A stretch of 64,000 nucleotides of DNA. It comes from Oscillospiraceae bacterium (lineage in GTDB: Bacteria > Bacillota > Clostridia > Oscillospirales > CAG-382). The notes under the pieces were generated by a model that saw only the letters and a list, made by a program, of their open reading frames with translations, did no database searches and was not told the DNA's origin. Location of the stretch: positions 1-64,000 of the forward strand of contig SVRI01000004.1 of assembly GCA_015064895.1 (NCBI GenBank), read 5' to 3'. This document shows positions 28,907 through 36,632 of the stretch, one piece after another. The position numbers and the translations under genes were made by a program. Within the stretch, counting starts at the first letter, position 1. Each line of letters begins with the position of its first letter.

Positions 28907-28954
28907 TGATTTGAAGTTCTATATGTGATTTTGGTTAAATATTGCTTTTTTGTA

Positions 28955-28983
28955 TTGCAAAAAAAACACTCGTATGTTAAAAT
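28955..28983 (+). promoter_or_regulatory. Promoter of the first DUF4091 gene
   Basis: TTGCAA (28955-28960), 17 bases, TAAAAT (28978-28983). It diverges from the kinase promoter, with about 48 bases between the two -35 boxes. Confidence 0.55.
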
Positions 28984-29020
28984 AACGTATACTATTTTTA
29001 ATTTGTCGGAGGAAAGAAAT

Positions 29021-30697
29021 ATGGATATTCTTCTTAAAAATATTTCAAGCCTTGAAAAGGTCAGAAGTGTGCCCGAACTTGAGGCACTTAATGAAGTAAA
29101 CTCTGCAAAGGTGCTTGCAGGCGAAAACTATTCGTATCAGGTGTGCGGTATCTTTACACAAAAGCCCGACCCCAATAACCCTTATACTCCTTATAAGGCT
29201 GATACATATGTGTTTGTTGATTCACCCTTGAAGGATTATATCAACGCATACTGCATTAAGGACGCTGTTGCCGACTGTGTTGTTCCTCACGATGACGACG
29301 TTATTATGACAGAGCCGGGCATTGTTCCCGATATTCTTGTACCCCTTGAAATGCAGAACGGCAGAATGGCAATTTCAAATACTGTAACTTCTCTCTGGAT
29401 TGAAGTAAAAGTGCCCTCATATATGAAAGCAGGCACATATCCCATCACCATCAGAATGGAAAGTAATCTTGACAGAAGCGACTGCTTAGAAAAGAGCTTT
29501 GAAATTGAGGTTCTTCCTGCTACACTTCCTTCACAGTCTACAATCTTTACCCAGTGGCTGTATGCCGACTGTATTGCAACGGCACACAATGTTGAAGTTT
29601 ATTCCGAAGAGCATTGGGAACTCATTGAAAAGTATGTAAAGCTTGCAAGAGAAGTGGGCATTAACATGATTCTTACTCCCATTATCACACCTCCTCTTGA
29701 TACCGAAACAGGACTCAAGAGAGTATGCGTTCAGCTTCTTAAAATAGAAAAGTGCGGCGACAAGTATTACTTTGACTTCTCTCTTCTTGATAGATGGATT
29801 GACATGTGCAAGCGTTGCGGCATTGAATACTTTGAAATGGCACATCTCTTCTCCCAGTGGGGACTTCAGTACACAGCCAACATCAAGGTAAAGGAAAACG
29901 GTGTTGAGGACTATATTTTCGACACCCGAGTAAAGTCAACCGATCCCGAATACGGCAATTTCCTCCGTCAGATGCTTCCTGCACTCGTTAAGTTCTTAAA
30001 GTCTAAGGAAGTGTTCGATAGCTGCTTCTTCCACATCTCCGACGAGCCTTACGACGGCCACCTTGAGGCTTATCAGTTCGGAAGAGACGTTCTTGCACCC
30101 ATTGTAGGCGAAGAAAGAATGATGGATGCCATGAGCAGGGTTGAGTATTATGACAGAGGTCTTACAAAGCTTCCCGTCGTTTCCATCAATCACATGCCCG
30201 ATTTTCTCAGCCGTGACATTGAAAACAGATGGGGCTACTACTGCTGCAGTCAGTGGGATAAGGTAAGTAACAACTTCCTTGCTATGCCCGGATACAGAAA
30301 CAGAATTATCGGTCTTCAGATTTATAAGTTCAATCTTGTAGGCTTCCTCAATTGGGGCTTTAACTACTATAACAGCCAGGTGTCCCGTTATCTTATCAAT
30401 CCTTACATGACATCCTCTGCCGATAAGGCTTTCCCCTCGGGTGACGCTTTCAGAGTATATCCCATGGAAAAGGGTCCTGTTCCTTCCATGAGAGCTATTA
30501 TTTTCAAAGAGGCACTTCAGGATGTTGACGTATGTAAGAGACTTGAAAAGTATATCGGCAAAGAAGCTGTTATCAAGATGATAGATGAAGAAGCAGGAAT
30601 GAATGTTACCTTCTTTGACTATCCCAGAAACAGCGACTATATCCCGACTCTTATGAACAAAATGAAGGAAATGATTGCAGAGCACCAGGCAAAATAA
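29021..30697 (+). CDS. DUF4091 family protein (putative glycoside-hydrolase-like), copy 1
   Basis: A 558-residue protein. An N-terminal beta domain (~1-170, ending in a THDPSYMKAGTYPITI-like sandwich strand) is followed by a TIM-barrel-like region with FTQWLYADCIA, REVGINMILTP and FFHISDEP (the DEP is a candidate catalytic acid). The C-terminal DUF4091 domain contains WGYYCCSQWDKVSNN and YRNRIIGLQIYKF. DUF4091 proteins often sit in sugar-degradation loci and are treated as likely glycosidases, but no reaction is established. No signal peptide is seen. GGAGG lies 8-9 bases before ATG 29021. A homologue follows after a small hairpin. Confidence 0.8.
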   Translation: MDILLKNISSLEKVRSVPELEALNEVNSAKVLAGENYSYQVCGIFTQKPDPNNPYTPYKADTYVFVDSPLKDYINAYCIKDAVADCVVPHDDDVIMTEPGIVPDILVPLEMQNGRMAISNTVTSLWIEVKVPSYMKAGTYPITIRMESNLDRSDCLEKSFEIEVLPATLPSQSTIFTQWLYADCIATAHNVEVYSEEHWELIEKYVKLAREVGINMILTPIITPPLDTETGLKRVCVQLLKIEKCGDKYYFDFSLLDRWIDMCKRCGIEYFEMAHLFSQWGLQYTANIKVKENGVEDYIFDTRVKSTDPEYGNFLRQMLPALVKFLKSKEVFDSCFFHISDEPYDGHLEAYQFGRDVLAPIVGEERMMDAMSRVEYYDRGLTKLPVVSINHMPDFLSRDIENRWGYYCCSQWDKVSNNFLAMPGYRNRIIGLQIYKFNLVGFLNWGFNYYNSQVSRYLINPYMTSSADKAFPSGDAFRVYPMEKGPVPSMRAIIFKEALQDVDVCKRLEKYIGKEAVIKMIDEEAGMNVTFFDYPRNSDYIPTLMNKMKEMIAEHQAK

Positions 30698-30703
30698 AGA
30701 TGC

Positions 30704-30726
30704 AGGCGGTATTTTTACCGCCTTGA
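30704..30726 (+). other. Hairpin between the two DUF4091 genes
   Basis: AGGCGGTA-TTTT-TACCGCCT, an 8-bp stem at 30704-30723, is followed by TTG rather than a T-run. It is a poor terminator; it may trim or partly terminate the message between the two paralogues. Confidence 0.6.
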
Positions 30727-30745
30727 TTGATACGGAGGTATAAAA

Positions 30746-32374
30746 ATGGGTATATATGCCGATATGAAAATAGTATCGTCTCTTGAGAAGATGCGTCCTA
30801 TGGACGAGCTTCCAGGTACGGATATCAAGAAAATTACTGCCCTTAAAGGCGAAAACGTTAACTTTCAGGTTTATGTGAAAATAGCTGAAAGACTGACTCT
30901 GCCCGTAACCGTTGAGAGCGAGCTTTCAAAATATGCAACACTCTATCAGGTAAGGGATACAATTGTTGACTTTATCTGGTTCTGCGATGAAGATGTAATA
31001 ACCGACAAGCCCGGCATTATGCCCGATATTCTCATTCCGCTTTCAGACCAGAACGGTTATTATTCGGCATCAAGATACGGCTCATGTATGTGGGTGAATA
31101 TAAAGCTGCCGGAAGATATAGGTGCAGGGGAATATGACTTTATGGTACACTTCGGAGAAGATTGTGCAAGTGTCAGCATTGAAGTTGTTGACGCGGTTCT
31201 TGAAGAAAACACGCTTAAGTATACCCAGTGGTTCCATCCCGACTGTATTGCGAGTACTCATAATGTAGCAATGTACTCCGATGAGCATTGGAAGCTTATT
31301 GAAAATTATATGCTTCTTGCAAAGGAAACGGGTATCAATATGGTGCTTACACCTGTACTGCCTCTTAATCTTGATACTGACCGCGGCTTTAATGTAAAAC
31401 GCCCCGACTGTTCGCTTACGGATATTACCGTGATAAACGGCACTTATTCTTTCGGATTTGACAGACTCGGCAGGTATATTGACCTTGCTCTCAAATGCGG
31501 TATGCAGTATTTTGAAATATCCCACCTTTATCATGCAGGCGGTGCAGAGTGGTGTATAAATATAGAGGCTGATGTTGACGGCGAAAGAAAATATATATTC
31601 GATTCGTCAATGCGTGCGGATACCGAGGAATATGTAGGTTTTCTCAAAGCCTTTGTTCCTGCACTTACATCTTTCCTTAAAGATAAAGGTGTATTTGATA
31701 AGTGCTACTTTCATATTTCCGATGAGCCCAATAAGAATAATATTGACATCTATGAATACGCAAACAAGCAGATAAAACCGCTTTTTGAGGGAAGACCACT
31801 AATGGATGCACTTTCCGAGGTTGATTTTGTAGAACGCGGTCTTATGGATGTTGCCGTTGCGGAAATTGCACACATTGAAGACTTTATTAATAAGGATTTC
31901 GAAGAGAAGTGGTGCTACTACTGCTGCGGTGACTGGGATAAGGTCAGCAACAGACTTCTTTTCATGCCCTCGTACCGTAACAGGATTATAGGACTTCAGA
32001 TATATAAATACGGCTTTGACGGCTTTTTGCATTGGGGATATAATTTCACCTACGTTTCGGGCTCGATGTTTGATATAAACCCTTATGTGTCTCAGTCATC
32101 CAGCAACATGTTCCCGTCGGGTGATGCGGCGAGTGTTTATCCGTCAAAGAACGGCGCATATCCTTCAATAAGGGCACTTGTTTTCAAGGAAGCAATCGAG
32201 GACATTCAGCTTTGCCGTACACTTGAAAAGTATATCGGTAAAGAGAGGGTAGTAGAGCTTATAGATAAAGAAGCAGGCATGAACCTTACATTTAAGGATT
32301 ATCCGAGAAATGCAGAATTTCTGCCCCGCCTTGCCGACAAAATGAGACAAATGATTAAGGAGCTTTCAAAATGA
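30746..32374 (+). CDS. DUF4091 family protein (putative glycoside-hydrolase-like), copy 2
   Basis: A 542-residue paralogue of the upstream gene with the same domain order. Matching segments include YTQWFHPDCIASTHNV, KETGINMVLTPV, YFHISDEP, WCYYCCGDWDKVSNR and YRNRIIGLQIYKYGF, so the likely active site is kept. The N-terminal domain is shorter and more diverged, which suggests an old duplication with changed specificity. GGAGG precedes ATG 30746. The stop overlaps the start of the esterase gene by 4 bases, so the two are co-translated. It is predicted to be cytoplasmic. Confidence 0.8.
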   Translation: MGIYADMKIVSSLEKMRPMDELPGTDIKKITALKGENVNFQVYVKIAERLTLPVTVESELSKYATLYQVRDTIVDFIWFCDEDVITDKPGIMPDILIPLSDQNGYYSASRYGSCMWVNIKLPEDIGAGEYDFMVHFGEDCASVSIEVVDAVLEENTLKYTQWFHPDCIASTHNVAMYSDEHWKLIENYMLLAKETGINMVLTPVLPLNLDTDRGFNVKRPDCSLTDITVINGTYSFGFDRLGRYIDLALKCGMQYFEISHLYHAGGAEWCINIEADVDGERKYIFDSSMRADTEEYVGFLKAFVPALTSFLKDKGVFDKCYFHISDEPNKNNIDIYEYANKQIKPLFEGRPLMDALSEVDFVERGLMDVAVAEIAHIEDFINKDFEEKWCYYCCGDWDKVSNRLLFMPSYRNRIIGLQIYKYGFDGFLHWGYNFTYVSGSMFDINPYVSQSSSNMFPSGDAASVYPSKNGAYPSIRALVFKEAIEDIQLCRTLEKYIGKERVVELIDKEAGMNLTFKDYPRNAEFLPRLADKMRQMIKELSK

Positions 32375-33137: not shown

Positions 33138-34922
33138 TTATTCGGCATATGCGTATCTACCAACAAAGAGAATTTCACCGTTTGTATCATCTCGGATTAC
33201 GAAATAGAAAGGCTTGTCAAACTTTACTATGATTGGTTCTTCTGGCTTTGCACTTGTGGCACCATCCATCGCAACAGCCGTAACAGCCGCCGCTTCCGTG
33301 CCTTCTTCGTCAATGGAAATGTATGTCTTGTGAATAACCGTATCTATCCATAAACGCTCCTCGGGTGAAAGGGTTATCATGTCTGAAAAATCAGCCGATA
33401 TTTTGCTGAAGGGTTTGTGCATGCCGATACGCATCAACATATCGTTAAGCTCGGTGTCATATTCAATCTTGAATTTTGGAACAAACAAACTCAATCTTTC
33501 GTATGTCATTTTAGCTTTATCAAGGACACTTTCGACATCTGTGCTTTCTGTCATAATGAGATACATGGAAATGTTCAGCTTTTCAACTATATCTACTTCA
33601 ACATTGCCATTTTCATCTTCTATGTAGAAGCTTGTCTTATATGGCATTTTTACCATTTCAGCATTATTTGATTTAAAGTATGAAAAATAATCTGTCTGAT
33701 GCATGAAATCTATCTGAGTTTCTTTTCCGTCAGCCGAAGTAAAAGTGTTTGGCTTTGTTAGGTTTTCGTTAAAATCATTTTCCCATGCACCTTTGAAATA
33801 TATTGCGTTTACCAGAGCTGTCCAAAAATCGGGTTCATCAATAACGGTAGGAATCCTTCCAACTGTTTTATCATTTACCCAGCCGTTGATTCGTTTTACG
33901 GCATTATTGTTGTTTACAGTTTCGGCTTCTGCGTTATAATACTCTGAAATTGTTTTCTTATATTCATCCTTGAAATCATGCGGACAGTTGTCGGTGTTTA
34001 CCCAGACAGAATTTGCAACATTCAGCATAAGTTTTTCAGACTGAAAGTACTTTTCCATAAGCTCTTTTGAAAATGTATTGAATTTGTCGAGATCTTCTAT
34101 TTGTAAAGCATCGATAATTTGTTCTTTTGTTTCACCGACTGCACCATTCGCTGCAAGAGCAAGTGCCATTTTTATTGAAATAGGGGAAAACATATAGTTT
34201 TCATCTTTTGGCATCTGCATATTCAGTTTATCTGCAAAACTTGCATTTTCCGGAATTGGCTTTGTCTTTTCAATAATGTCGTATGTTCTCATGGCAATTA
34301 CAACTGCCTCCTCTGTCGAAAGATTGGATTTAGGGTAGAACACATTTCCGCTGTATCCGTTCATTAGACCTATATGAGATACAAGCTGGATGCCGTTCCA
34401 TGCCCAATCTGAGATACTTTCATCGTCGTCGTATTCGATTATGTCATCGGTATATACAAGGTCACAGCCCATTAGATTTATAAGTCTGTCAAAGATAACT
34501 GCCGCTTCTTCACGGGTTAATAAATCATTTGGAGCAAAGAAGCCATTTCCTTTGCCGTTGATTATACCGTTAATGTACAAATTCAGAATAGCCGGGTTGT
34601 TTGTATCTTCAAAAGGATTTTCAATATTAATTGAAGTCGTTTCAGGTTGCTTTGATTCAATGCCGCAAAGTCGGTAGATAAGTTCGCAAAACTCTTCTCT
34701 CGTAATATAGCTTCCATAGTAATACGTCTTATCAGAATCCAGTATTCCAAGCCCAAGTGCCTTTTCTACATCTTCCTTTGCCCAGTCGGCGGGGGTGGTG
34801 CTTGCAGAGGCATTGGAAGCATCGCTTACTTTCTTCGGACCGTCAATGCCGTCGGCAGAAACACTAAGCATGCATGATACTGCAAAGATAAGAGACAAAA
34901 TTGTACATAACAGTTTTTTCAT
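33138..34922 (-). CDS. Surface (SLH-domain) serpin protease inhibitor
   Basis: A 594-residue exported protein: signal peptide (~1-23), three SLH repeats (~45-90, 97-142, 155-205; for example YITREEFCELIYRL, LLTREEAAVIFDRLI), then a full serpin domain (~218-594). SLH repeats anchor proteins to cell-wall polymers, so the inhibitor would face the outside. Serpin marks include FSPISIKMALALAANGA, LVNAIYFKGAWENDF and FDKPFYFVIRD. The hinge GTEAAAVTAV (from residue 541) has the small residues needed for loop insertion, so it should be inhibitory. Counting from the hinge puts P1-P1' near A555-T556, suggesting an elastase-like target. The loop is about five residues longer than in human alpha-1-antitrypsin, so P1 is uncertain. 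It has its own consensus promoter. Confidence 0.9.
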   Translation of the reverse strand: MKKLLCTILSLIFAVSCMLSVSADGIDGPKKVSDASNASASTTPADWAKEDVEKALGLGILDSDKTYYYGSYITREEFCELIYRLCGIESKQPETTSINIENPFEDTNNPAILNLYINGIINGKGNGFFAPNDLLTREEAAVIFDRLINLMGCDLVYTDDIIEYDDDESISDWAWNGIQLVSHIGLMNGYSGNVFYPKSNLSTEEAVVIAMRTYDIIEKTKPIPENASFADKLNMQMPKDENYMFSPISIKMALALAANGAVGETKEQIIDALQIEDLDKFNTFSKELMEKYFQSEKLMLNVANSVWVNTDNCPHDFKDEYKKTISEYYNAEAETVNNNNAVKRINGWVNDKTVGRIPTVIDEPDFWTALVNAIYFKGAWENDFNENLTKPNTFTSADGKETQIDFMHQTDYFSYFKSNNAEMVKMPYKTSFYIEDENGNVEVDIVEKLNISMYLIMTESTDVESVLDKAKMTYERLSLFVPKFKIEYDTELNDMLMRIGMHKPFSKISADFSDMITLSPEERLWIDTVIHKTYISIDEEGTEAAAVTAVAMDGATSAKPEEPIIVKFDKPFYFVIRDDTNGEILFVGRYAYAE

Positions 34923-34944
34923 AACTATCTACCTCCGTAGTTTT

Positions 34945-34973
34945 ATTATATAATACTCTGTTTTTGCTGTCAA
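34945..34973 (-). promoter_or_regulatory. Promoter of the serpin gene
   Basis: On the minus strand: TTGACA (34973-34968), 17 bases, TATAAT (34950-34945). It begins at the base after the stop codon of the upstream lipoprotein gene, so the serpin is transcribed independently. Confidence 0.85.
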
Positions 34974-36632
34974 TCAACCATTGGTATAAACATTCTCTGT
35001 CACAATAAGCCGAGTTATGCCGTCAAAGTTGAGATAAACTGTCTGCGTTGGTGTTTTAATTTCTGAACCATCAGAGTTATCAGTCATTACAAGGTTTCCG
35101 TTTTCGTCTTCTGAAATGAATCTATGCCAGGTAGTGCCGGGAAAAACGATTTTATGAAGCTCCTCGCCGTTTTCGGGATTTATTCCACACCAATAACTTA
35201 TACTATGCATAGATACTTGATCAATACCTAATTCTCTCATTGCAAGCTCTACTGCCACAGCAGTATTTTCGGCGTTGAGCGTCATGGTGTTGTTTATAAA
35301 ACCGTCGGTTTTAATGCTGTAATTTCCGTTTGAATATTTTTCTAAATCTTCCTCATATGAAAAAGTAGTCATAACATCTGAAGTTATATAATCTGAGCCA
35401 TATGGTTTTTCAAAATAAGCATAATATATTTGCTTATCAAAATCGCCTGTTTCTCTGAAGTCCATTACTTCCTTTGCAATTCTGTACCTGCCGCCGCCAA
35501 GTGCACCGTATAGCCAATGCCAGTCAGTCCGAAGTTCTGTTTCTCCATCACTGTCTATTCCGTATGCTGCCATATTAAACGCATAGTCGATAAGAGGCAA
35601 TGTATCAACGGCAACCCACTTGCCGCCATCCATTTTTTCAAGCCAGAATGCCTCACCTGTCTGGAGCCTGCCTGTCACATCCGCTTCAAACGGGTCAAAT
35701 ACGATTGTTGCACCGTCAAAGCTTACATCTCTTGCTTCAAGCCTTAACCCCCAGTCTTTCCAAAGATAAGCACCAATACAAACAGCAGTCGCATTCTTTG
35801 CGTTTATGTCCATATCATTTGTACCGATGTATATATCTCTGTTTCCGTCGAGGGTGTGATATTTTAATATCTTAAATCCGTCACAACTGTATAAGATTGA
35901 GCCACCGTCATCGTAACTTACAGCAGGGTATTTCCAGTTACATCCTGCAATCAGTCCGTCAAGTGTAATCTTGCCGTAGTGTAGTGCTTCTTTTAAAGGA
36001 AGTGTATCTCCGTCAACCTTTACATAAACATCGTGAAGACCGTAGTAATATAAATTATAGTCGCTGGCATCTTCGTCAAAATCCCTGTTGTTGGCTACAA
36101 GTGTAAGAAGACCGGCATACTGAATTTCTGCAAATCTTGCAGGGATGCTGTCCTGTCTGTACTGAACGGAAAGCTCAAATTCCGCAAATCCGTCGTGTCT
36201 TATGTCATCGGTTGTAATAGTAGAACCGCCGGTAATGGGAGGAATATAGGTTATAACAACCTTTCTTCCTATTCCGTATAAATAGTCAACGTGGTCGTGT
36301 AGGTATTCTACACGGATTTTTTTTGAAATCTCATATTCTTCTTCGTCTGCATTCGGCTCGACTACCATGTAATATGTATCTTCTTCGACAACTGTTCCCA
36401 CAAAACTTTCGGGAGGAAGCTCGTTTTCAACGACATCTGAGTCTGTGCCCGGTTCAGAAATGTTTTTGTCGGGTAGCACTGCTACTATCTTATCATCCTT
36501 ATCATCATTTGCCTGAGGAAGAATCAGGTCTTTATTCTTTGTTTCTTTTTTATCACAAGAAATAAGAATTGTAGCCGTTAAAGTAATGCTTAACATGATT
36601 GAGACAAGTATTAAAAAGCTGCTCTTTTTCAT
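34974..36632 (-). CDS. Lipoprotein with a bacterial Ig-like (Big_14-like) region, function unknown
   Basis: A 552-residue lipoprotein. The signal peptide ends in the lipobox LISC (Cys ~26), followed by an acidic linker (~30-80) that would span the wall. The part with GRLQTGEAFWLEKMDGGKWVAVDTLP and GGGRYRIAKEVMDFRE (~320-420) resembles the Big_14 immunoglobulin-like domain of Clostridia surface lipoproteins. I recognise no enzyme motif. The N-terminal third resembles OB-like small beta domains (TYYMVVEPNADE, GIGRKVVITYIPP) but is not assigned. GGAGGAA lies upstream of ATG 36632. The serpin gene follows 51 bases downstream on the same strand but with its own promoter. Confidence 0.65.
   Translation of the reverse strand: MKKSSFLILVSIMLSITLTATILISCDKKETKNKDLILPQANDDKDDKIVAVLPDKNISEPGTDSDVVENELPPESFVGTVVEEDTYYMVVEPNADEEEYEISKKIRVEYLHDHVDYLYGIGRKVVITYIPPITGGSTITTDDIRHDGFAEFELSVQYRQDSIPARFAEIQYAGLLTLVANNRDFDEDASDYNLYYYGLHDVYVKVDGDTLPLKEALHYGKITLDGLIAGCNWKYPAVSYDDGGSILYSCDGFKILKYHTLDGNRDIYIGTNDMDINAKNATAVCIGAYLWKDWGLRLEARDVSFDGATIVFDPFEADVTGRLQTGEAFWLEKMDGGKWVAVDTLPLIDYAFNMAAYGIDSDGETELRTDWHWLYGALGGGRYRIAKEVMDFRETGDFDKQIYYAYFEKPYGSDYITSDVMTTFSYEEDLEKYSNGNYSIKTDGFINNTMTLNAENTAVAVELAMRELGIDQVSMHSISYWCGINPENGEELHKIVFPGTTWHRFISEDENGNLVMTDNSDGSEIKTPTQTVYLNFDGITRLIVTENVYTNG

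What the first reader, a model, noticed from the sequence alone, without database searches (positions are those of the whole stretch)
33138..34922. Cell-surface serpin carrying three SLH repeats
Seen: signal peptide, three SLH repeats and a full-length serpin domain with an intact inhibitory hinge (GTEAAAVTAV). Known: serpins are rare in bacteria, and gut Clostridia serpins that block elastase-like host proteases have been described. Inference: a wall-tethered inhibitor against host or microbial serine proteases. P1 near A555 suggests small-residue (elastase-type) specificity; the reactive loop is about five residues longer than in alpha-1-antitrypsin.
Basis: partly seen in the sequence, partly recalled or inferred. 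Interest (0 to 1): 0.6.

Follow-up and report, generated by a model that had tools for sequence, protein, structure and literature searches.

The report
Wall-anchored bacterial serpin (protease trap)
A gut-type Clostridia bacterium encodes a secreted serpin, a one-shot protease trap, fused to cell-wall-binding SLH repeats, and the same fusion recurs in many Clostridia families with a loop that keeps tiny residues at the bait site, as expected for an anti-elastase-type surface shield.

Summary
The minus-strand CDS 33138-34922 encodes 594 aa: signal peptide, three SLH repeats (two above Pfam's cut-off, the first divergent) and a full serpin domain (Pfam E 1e-84) with a perfect inhibitory hinge. 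It is the genome's only serpin. The genome has 71 SLH matches and CsaB, the pyruvyltransferase that makes the SLH ligand, so wall anchoring is plausible. It is not a one-off. SLH-serpins occur in the sister species, two named MAGs, other families of the order and at least 18 of 291 sampled genomes across the class. Most serpins of its own family are instead lipoproteins or membrane-anchored. Over 30 relatives the hinge is near-invariant. The bond region is small ([A/G/T][S/T][A/S]) and followed by an alpha-1-antitrypsin-like x-P-P-E. In the window the bait residue is A555 (counted from the hinge) or S557 (counted from PPE); both are small. This supports elastase/proteinase-3-type specificity, but the target is unproven. 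The genome's own dockerin-bearing subtilase is a rival target. Mechanism known, architecture apparently undescribed in the literature searched: a new variant of a known kind. Structure prediction failed (pLDDT 37).

The parts
33138..34922 (-). SLH-serpin CDS, 594 aa
34854..34922 (-). signal peptide, residues 1-23, predicted cleavage SVSA|DG
   Evidence: sequence inspection; counterpart leaders in orthologs
34659..34793 (-). SLH repeat 1 (residues ~44-88, ITREEF motif at 73), divergent, below the Pfam threshold
   Evidence: alignment with orthologs; helix pair in AF2 model (low confidence)
34473..34613 (-). SLH repeat 2 (residues ~104-150, LTREEA at 135)
   Evidence: Pfam SLH 110-141; 34500-34595 in the genome scan
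34305..34433 (-). SLH repeat 3 (residues ~164-206, LSTEEA at 201)
   Evidence: genome scan SLH hit
33150..34247 (-). serpin domain, residues 226-591
   Evidence: Pfam PF00079 E 1.1e-84; the only serpin in the genome
33279..33308 (-). reactive-loop hinge EEGTEAAAVT, residues 539-548
33243..33278 (-). bond region of the reactive loop AVAMDGATSAKP, residues 549-560; candidate P1 A555 or S557 (V550 by Siropin analogy)
   Evidence: for the Siropin sites
34945..34973 (-). perfect sigma-70-type promoter TTGACA-17-TATAAT between the upstream gene's stop and the serpin start; suggests its own transcription
   Evidence: 12 of 12; not found in the sister species
34931..34936 (-). ribosome-binding site GGAGGT
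   Evidence: sequence

Best explanation
A secreted serpin held on the cell wall by three SLH repeats that bind a pyruvylated secondary wall polymer. A protease that attacks the exposed reactive loop cleaves at a small residue (A555 or S557). The hinge EEGTEAAAVT then inserts into the main sheet and the protease is trapped covalently and irreversibly. Because it is tethered, it protects the cell's own surface layer and surface enzymes rather than the bulk medium. The most likely targets are small-residue (elastase / proteinase 3 type) serine proteases of the host gut or of neighbouring microbes. Shown here by sequence: architecture, hinge, CsaB, conservation of small bond residues. Inferred: wall binding, trapping, identity of the target.
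For: Serpin and SLH domains over curated cut-offs. Hinge invariant or nearly so in 30 relatives, P15-P8 all small except P13 Glu. CsaB over its NCBIfam cut-off and 71 SLH matches in the same genome; pyruvylated ManNAc made by CsaB is the known SLH ligand (abstracts of PMC6030368 and PMC10435577). The columns at the bond (554-558) are 93-100% A/G/S/T/V over the relatives (columns 555 and 556 are gapped in many, filled in 15 and 3 of 30), and no run of four such columns occurs in the serpin body. In most relatives the hinge-anchored P1 and the PPE-anchored P1 coincide on Ser/Thr followed by Ala/Ser-x-P-P-E, as in alpha-1-antitrypsin Met-Ser-Ile-Pro-Pro-Glu (A1AT loop recalled). Gut Siropins of the same fold are cut by human neutrophil elastase and proteinase 3 at Val bonds P6-P5 or P3-P2. 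The only basic residue of the bond region, K559, precedes Pro, so trypsin-like cleavage is disfavoured.
Against: No biochemistry. AF2 gave pLDDT 37, so there is no structural support. SLH repeat 1 is divergent. Small residues near the bond could reflect loop flexibility, not target choice. Siropins needed testing to find targets and did not inhibit subtilisin or pancreatic elastase. The host or habitat of the window genome is unknown.
Confidence: 0.6

Rival explanations
1. Self-protection of a surface enzyme complex: the serpin controls the bacterium's own or competitors' subtilisin-like proteases at the wall, as proposed for the dockerin-bearing cellulosomal serpins of Clostridium thermocellum, but with a direct SLH anchor.
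For: The genome encodes an exported S8 subtilase with a type I dockerin, an SLHx3-cohesin protein and further cohesin proteins. PinA of C. thermocellum is a dockerin serpin reported as a broad inhibitor of subtilisin-like proteases and thought to protect cellulosomes (reference list and text of PMC5301203 and PMC12484212).
Against: Only three dockerins in the genome, so a minimal system. Conserved small residues at the bond are not the usual subtilisin preference. The serpin is not next to protease or scaffoldin genes, and its neighbourhood is conserved only within the genus.
Confidence: 0.27
2. Secreted serpin that is not stably wall-bound: the SLH part is degenerate or the protein is a lipoprotein, and it acts in the medium or at the membrane.
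For: SLH1 is weak. In one family of the order (f13) the N-terminal module has decayed below Pfam thresholds. Cys17 fits a loose lipobox. Most serpins of the family have lipoprotein-like or membrane N-termini. One sister serpin lacks SLH altogether (G032).
Against: The TREE-like SLH motifs are kept in the window and G056 and the SLH region is the most conserved part between them. CsaB is present.
Confidence: 0.1
3. Non-inhibitory serpin (for example a binding or structural protein).
For: Some serpins lost inhibition (general knowledge of the family).
Against: The hinge is fully inhibitory-type and near-invariant over 30 relatives; non-inhibitory serpins typically lose it.
Confidence: 0.03

Closest known systems
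Miropin (Tannerella forsythia serpin, PDB 5NCS)
   Same: best PDB match, E 2.5e-42; identical hinge EEGTEAAAVTAV; similar long loop (25 against 26 residues P15 to strand)
   Different: no SLH; made by a Gram-negative oral bacterium; bond region V-K-T rather than A-T-S; broad inhibition shown by experiment
Siropins 1 and 2 (Eubacterium siraeum gut serpins)
   Same: bacterial gut serpins; inhibit neutrophil elastase and proteinase 3; cleaved at Val bonds in the hinge-proximal loop
   Different: no SLH or S-layer mentioned in the paper; mapped Val-Met and Val-Glu bonds resemble the other, lipoprotein-type serpins of this lineage (TxVEM) more than the SLH clade (my reading)
Dockerin-bearing cellulosomal serpins (C. 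thermocellum PinA, R. flavefaciens Doc-serpin, C. clariflavum Clocl_3968)
   Same: clostridial serpins recruited to the cell surface
   Different: recruited indirectly by dockerin-cohesin to SLH or sortase scaffoldins; here the SLH repeats are in the serpin polypeptide itself
SLH-anchored IPI-like inhibitor Chte0880 of C. thermocellum
   Same: SLH repeats combined with protease-inhibitor-like domains (PMC3901451)
   Different: IPI/BsuPI Ig-like fold, not a serpin
Alpha-1-antitrypsin
   Same: serpin fold; the loop after the bond S-I-P-P-E resembles S/A-x-P-P-E in the SLH clade
   Different: Met at P1, loop five residues shorter, soluble plasma protein

Membership tests
Serpin superfamily (PF00079) | full-length serpin domain over the curated cut-off | tested here: met
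   residues 226-591, profile 3-368 of 370, 285 bits against 27
Serpin superfamily (PF00079) | inhibitory hinge, P17-P8 E-x-G-T-E-A-A-A-x-T | tested here: met
   EEGTEAAAVT, near-invariant in 30 relatives
Serpin superfamily (PF00079) | serpin fold by structure | tested here: inconclusive
   AF2 with 4 sequences, mean pLDDT 37.4; no fold search was run on such a model
Serpin superfamily (PF00079) | covalent trapping of a protease | not testable with these tools
   needs biochemistry
SLH wall-anchored proteins | three SLH repeats | tested here: met
   two repeats over the Pfam threshold; the third supported by ortholog alignment and predicted helix pair only
SLH wall-anchored proteins | export signal | tested here: met
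   n/h/c regions and SVSA|DG by inspection; no signal-peptide program available
SLH wall-anchored proteins | CsaB pyruvyltransferase in the genome | tested here: met
   TIGR03609 267 bits against cut-off 213
SLH wall-anchored proteins | binding to the wall polymer | not testable with these tools
   needs an experiment
Cellulosomal serpin (PinA type) | dockerin module | tested here: not met
   no dockerin in the protein; the three dockerin hits of the genome are elsewhere
Siropin / lipoprotein-type serpins of the lineage | GTKAGA-type hinge and lipoprotein or membrane N-terminus | tested here: not met
   GTEAAA hinge and SLH; the tree separates the SLH clade (17 rows, 97) from that group of 64

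The most novel reading that the evidence does not exclude
A class-wide, anciently fused family of wall-tethered serpins in Clostridia that works as a surface anti-elastase shield. The loop is kept constant for small-residue proteases instead of being hypervariable, and the anchor half is exchanged between species by recombination separately from the inhibitor half.
Probability: 0.3. Interest if true: 0.6.

Novelty: new variant of a known kind. Interest (0 to 1): 0.42.

Why it matters
Characterised gut bacterial serpins are discussed mostly as soluble anti-inflammatory factors. A serpin built into the wall would give the producing cell private protection, would make 'who is protected, the cell or the host' testable, and offers a family with one predicted target class. 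It also adds a direct-anchoring route beside the dockerin route known from cellulosomes.

Tried and rejected
Conserved operon partner: the upstream Big_14 gene and the amidase gene travel with the serpin only in the sister species; other SLH-serpins sit beside unrelated genes such as M20 peptidase, 5'-nucleotidase, rhamnosidase and ThrRS, so no functional partner is claimed. Intragenomic gene conversion of the SLH part: no near-identical SLH paralog in the genomes searched, rejected. Hypervariable loop under positive selection: not supported in general, the bond columns are conserved in type although residues 549-554 vary; dN/dS on such short stretches is too noisy. Literature: searches for serpin with SLH or S-layer found no description of an SLH-serpin; the library lacks most subscription journals, so absence is weak evidence.

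Full report
What is there. The window's minus-strand ORF 33138-34922 encodes 594 residues. It starts with a signal peptide (MKKLLCTILSLIFAVSCMLSVSA|DG), followed by an SLH region (residues ~44-212) and a complete serpin domain (226-591, Pfam E 1.1e-84). Two SLH repeats pass Pfam. The first repeat is divergent but keeps an ITREEF motif and aligns with the orthologs. The gene has a good ribosome-binding site and a perfect TTGACA-17-TATAAT promoter in the 51-base gap after the upstream gene, so it is probably transcribed on its own. That promoter is not found in the sister species.

Anchoring. The genome (2.28 Mb, 98% complete) has 71 SLH matches and one CsaB over its curated cut-off. SLH trimers bind wall polymers that CsaB pyruvylates (abstracts). 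The machinery for SLH display is therefore present. Wall binding of this protein is inferred. A loose lipobox around Cys17 is noted, but most orthologs have no Cys there; RGIG2041 and G064 do have lipobox-like leaders.

Reactive loop. The hinge is EEGTEAAAVT (539-548), G541 = P15 and hinge-anchored P1 = A555. Among PDB sequences miropin is the closest, with the same hinge. I aligned the window protein with 29 relatives, 30 rows in all: two named MAGs, others of its family and order, and fourteen from the rest of the class; two of the rows (G032, G621) lack SLH. The hinge is near-invariant. Residues 549-554 vary. The columns at the bond (554-558) are 93-100% Ala/Gly/Ser/Thr/Val (555 and 556 are gapped in many rows), then comes a variable residue and P-P-E-P. 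No stretch of four such small columns occurs in the serpin body; in the rest of the protein only the hinge has one. In most relatives the loop is one to two residues shorter than in the window, and in the shortest the hinge count and the C-terminal count agree on P1 = Ser/Thr, P1' = Ala/Ser, then x-P-P-E, like alpha-1-antitrypsin's M-S-I-P-P-E (recalled). In the window the extra residues make P1 either A555 or S557. By analogy with the mapped Siropin 2 site (Val-Glu at P6-P5), V550-A551 is a third candidate. All three are small or Val, which fits elastase or proteinase 3. The only basic residue, K559, is followed by Pro, which argues against trypsin.

Distribution and origin. Serpins are common in this lineage: 40 of 63 genomes of the family. 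Most of those are lipoprotein-like or membrane-anchored, often with a GTKAGA hinge. The SLH-serpins form a separate group in a quick tree (17 rows, SH-aLRT 97; two of the 17 lack SLH), which contains the window, G056 (75% identical), G049, G051, G150, two MAGs (Oscillospiraceae SIG457; Clostridia RGIG2041, goat colon), a family whose N-terminal module has decayed, and G194. In a sample of 291 genomes of the class I count 18 further genomes outside the order, in eight families, whose match spans both the SLH and serpin parts (my reading); the ones scanned pass Pfam for both domains. The best of them (G518, 49%) is as close as SIG457. The fusion is therefore old or has spread horizontally; the data do not decide.

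Modularity. Relatives G662 and G605 carry a family 3 solute-binding domain between signal peptide and SLH, and G492 a PBP-like domain between SLH and serpin. The window's leader ADGIDGPKK matches the start of that insert (ADGIDGPMQKA), which suggests the window's 20-residue linker is what remained after loss of a solute-binding domain (inferred). Between G049 and G051 the DNA from about -60 to +600 is 95-100% identical while the flanks on either side are mostly 65-89%; synonymous divergence there is near zero against 0.4-1.0 in neighbouring genes. The window and G056 show the same for residues ~67-165 (dS 0.1-0.3 against 1.1-2.2 in neighbours). No SLH paralog in the genomes searched could be the donor. 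Recombination of the anchor part between lineages is the simplest reading.

How it most likely works. A tethered suicide inhibitor: loop cleaved at a small residue, hinge inserts, protease trapped at the wall. The most likely prey is a small-residue serine protease from host or neighbours. The main rival is control of subtilisin-like enzymes at the bacterium's own surface: the genome has an exported S8 protease with a dockerin and cohesin proteins, one of them SLHx3-cohesin. Dockerin serpins of C. thermocellum are thought to protect cellulosomes from such proteases. Sequence cannot decide between these.

Comparison and novelty. Each part is known: bacterial serpins, SLH anchoring and surface recruitment by dockerins. 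I found no paper describing serpin and SLH in one polypeptide (a limited library). I file it as a new variant of a known kind. The protein is a serpin by domain and hinge; inhibition, target and wall binding remain untested.

Limits. No reliable structure. The tree is a quick one. Counts come from a sample.

Noticed in passing
L114/L115 (G049, G051) and window 34428-34724 against L071 (G056): The SLH half of the serpin gene is far more similar in DNA between species (95-100%; dS near 0 to 0.3) than the serpin half and flanking genes (dS about 0.4-2): apparent recombination of the anchor module between lineages.
   Followed up: partly
L147, L148, L152, L140: SLH-serpins with an added solute-binding domain (SBP_bac_3 or PBP_like_2), or a truncated remnant of it in L140; the window's leader ADGIDGPKK looks like a shorter remnant.
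   Followed up: partly
L138 (G000:C21) and L139 (G000:C10): Cohesin proteins: one SLHx3-cohesin, one cohesin with a MACPF (perforin-like) domain and Listeria-Bacteroides repeats, one with LRR, one with cohesins, a dockerin and Big_2 repeats; only three dockerins in the genome. A small cellulosome-like or surface-display system of unclear role.
   Followed up: partly
L078 (G000:C5:68241-69452): Exported S8 subtilase with a C-terminal type I dockerin, a candidate own target of the serpin.
   Followed up: partly
window 34974-36632: Upstream gene: secreted protein with a Big_14 (Ig-like) domain. Big_14 is fused to serpins in relatives L013, L016 and L030. Conserved next to the serpin only in the genus.
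   Followed up: partly
L032, L024, L015, L046, L013: Lipoprotein-type serpins with an extra ~150-residue domain (AQYIRTDGYH...GSGSIRHEVKS) before or after the serpin that gets no Pfam hit where scanned.
   Followed up: no
window 28925-32374: Two adjacent genes that look like GH123-type glycoside hydrolase paralogs (only the first was scanned), followed by an S9-type esterase.
   Followed up: no
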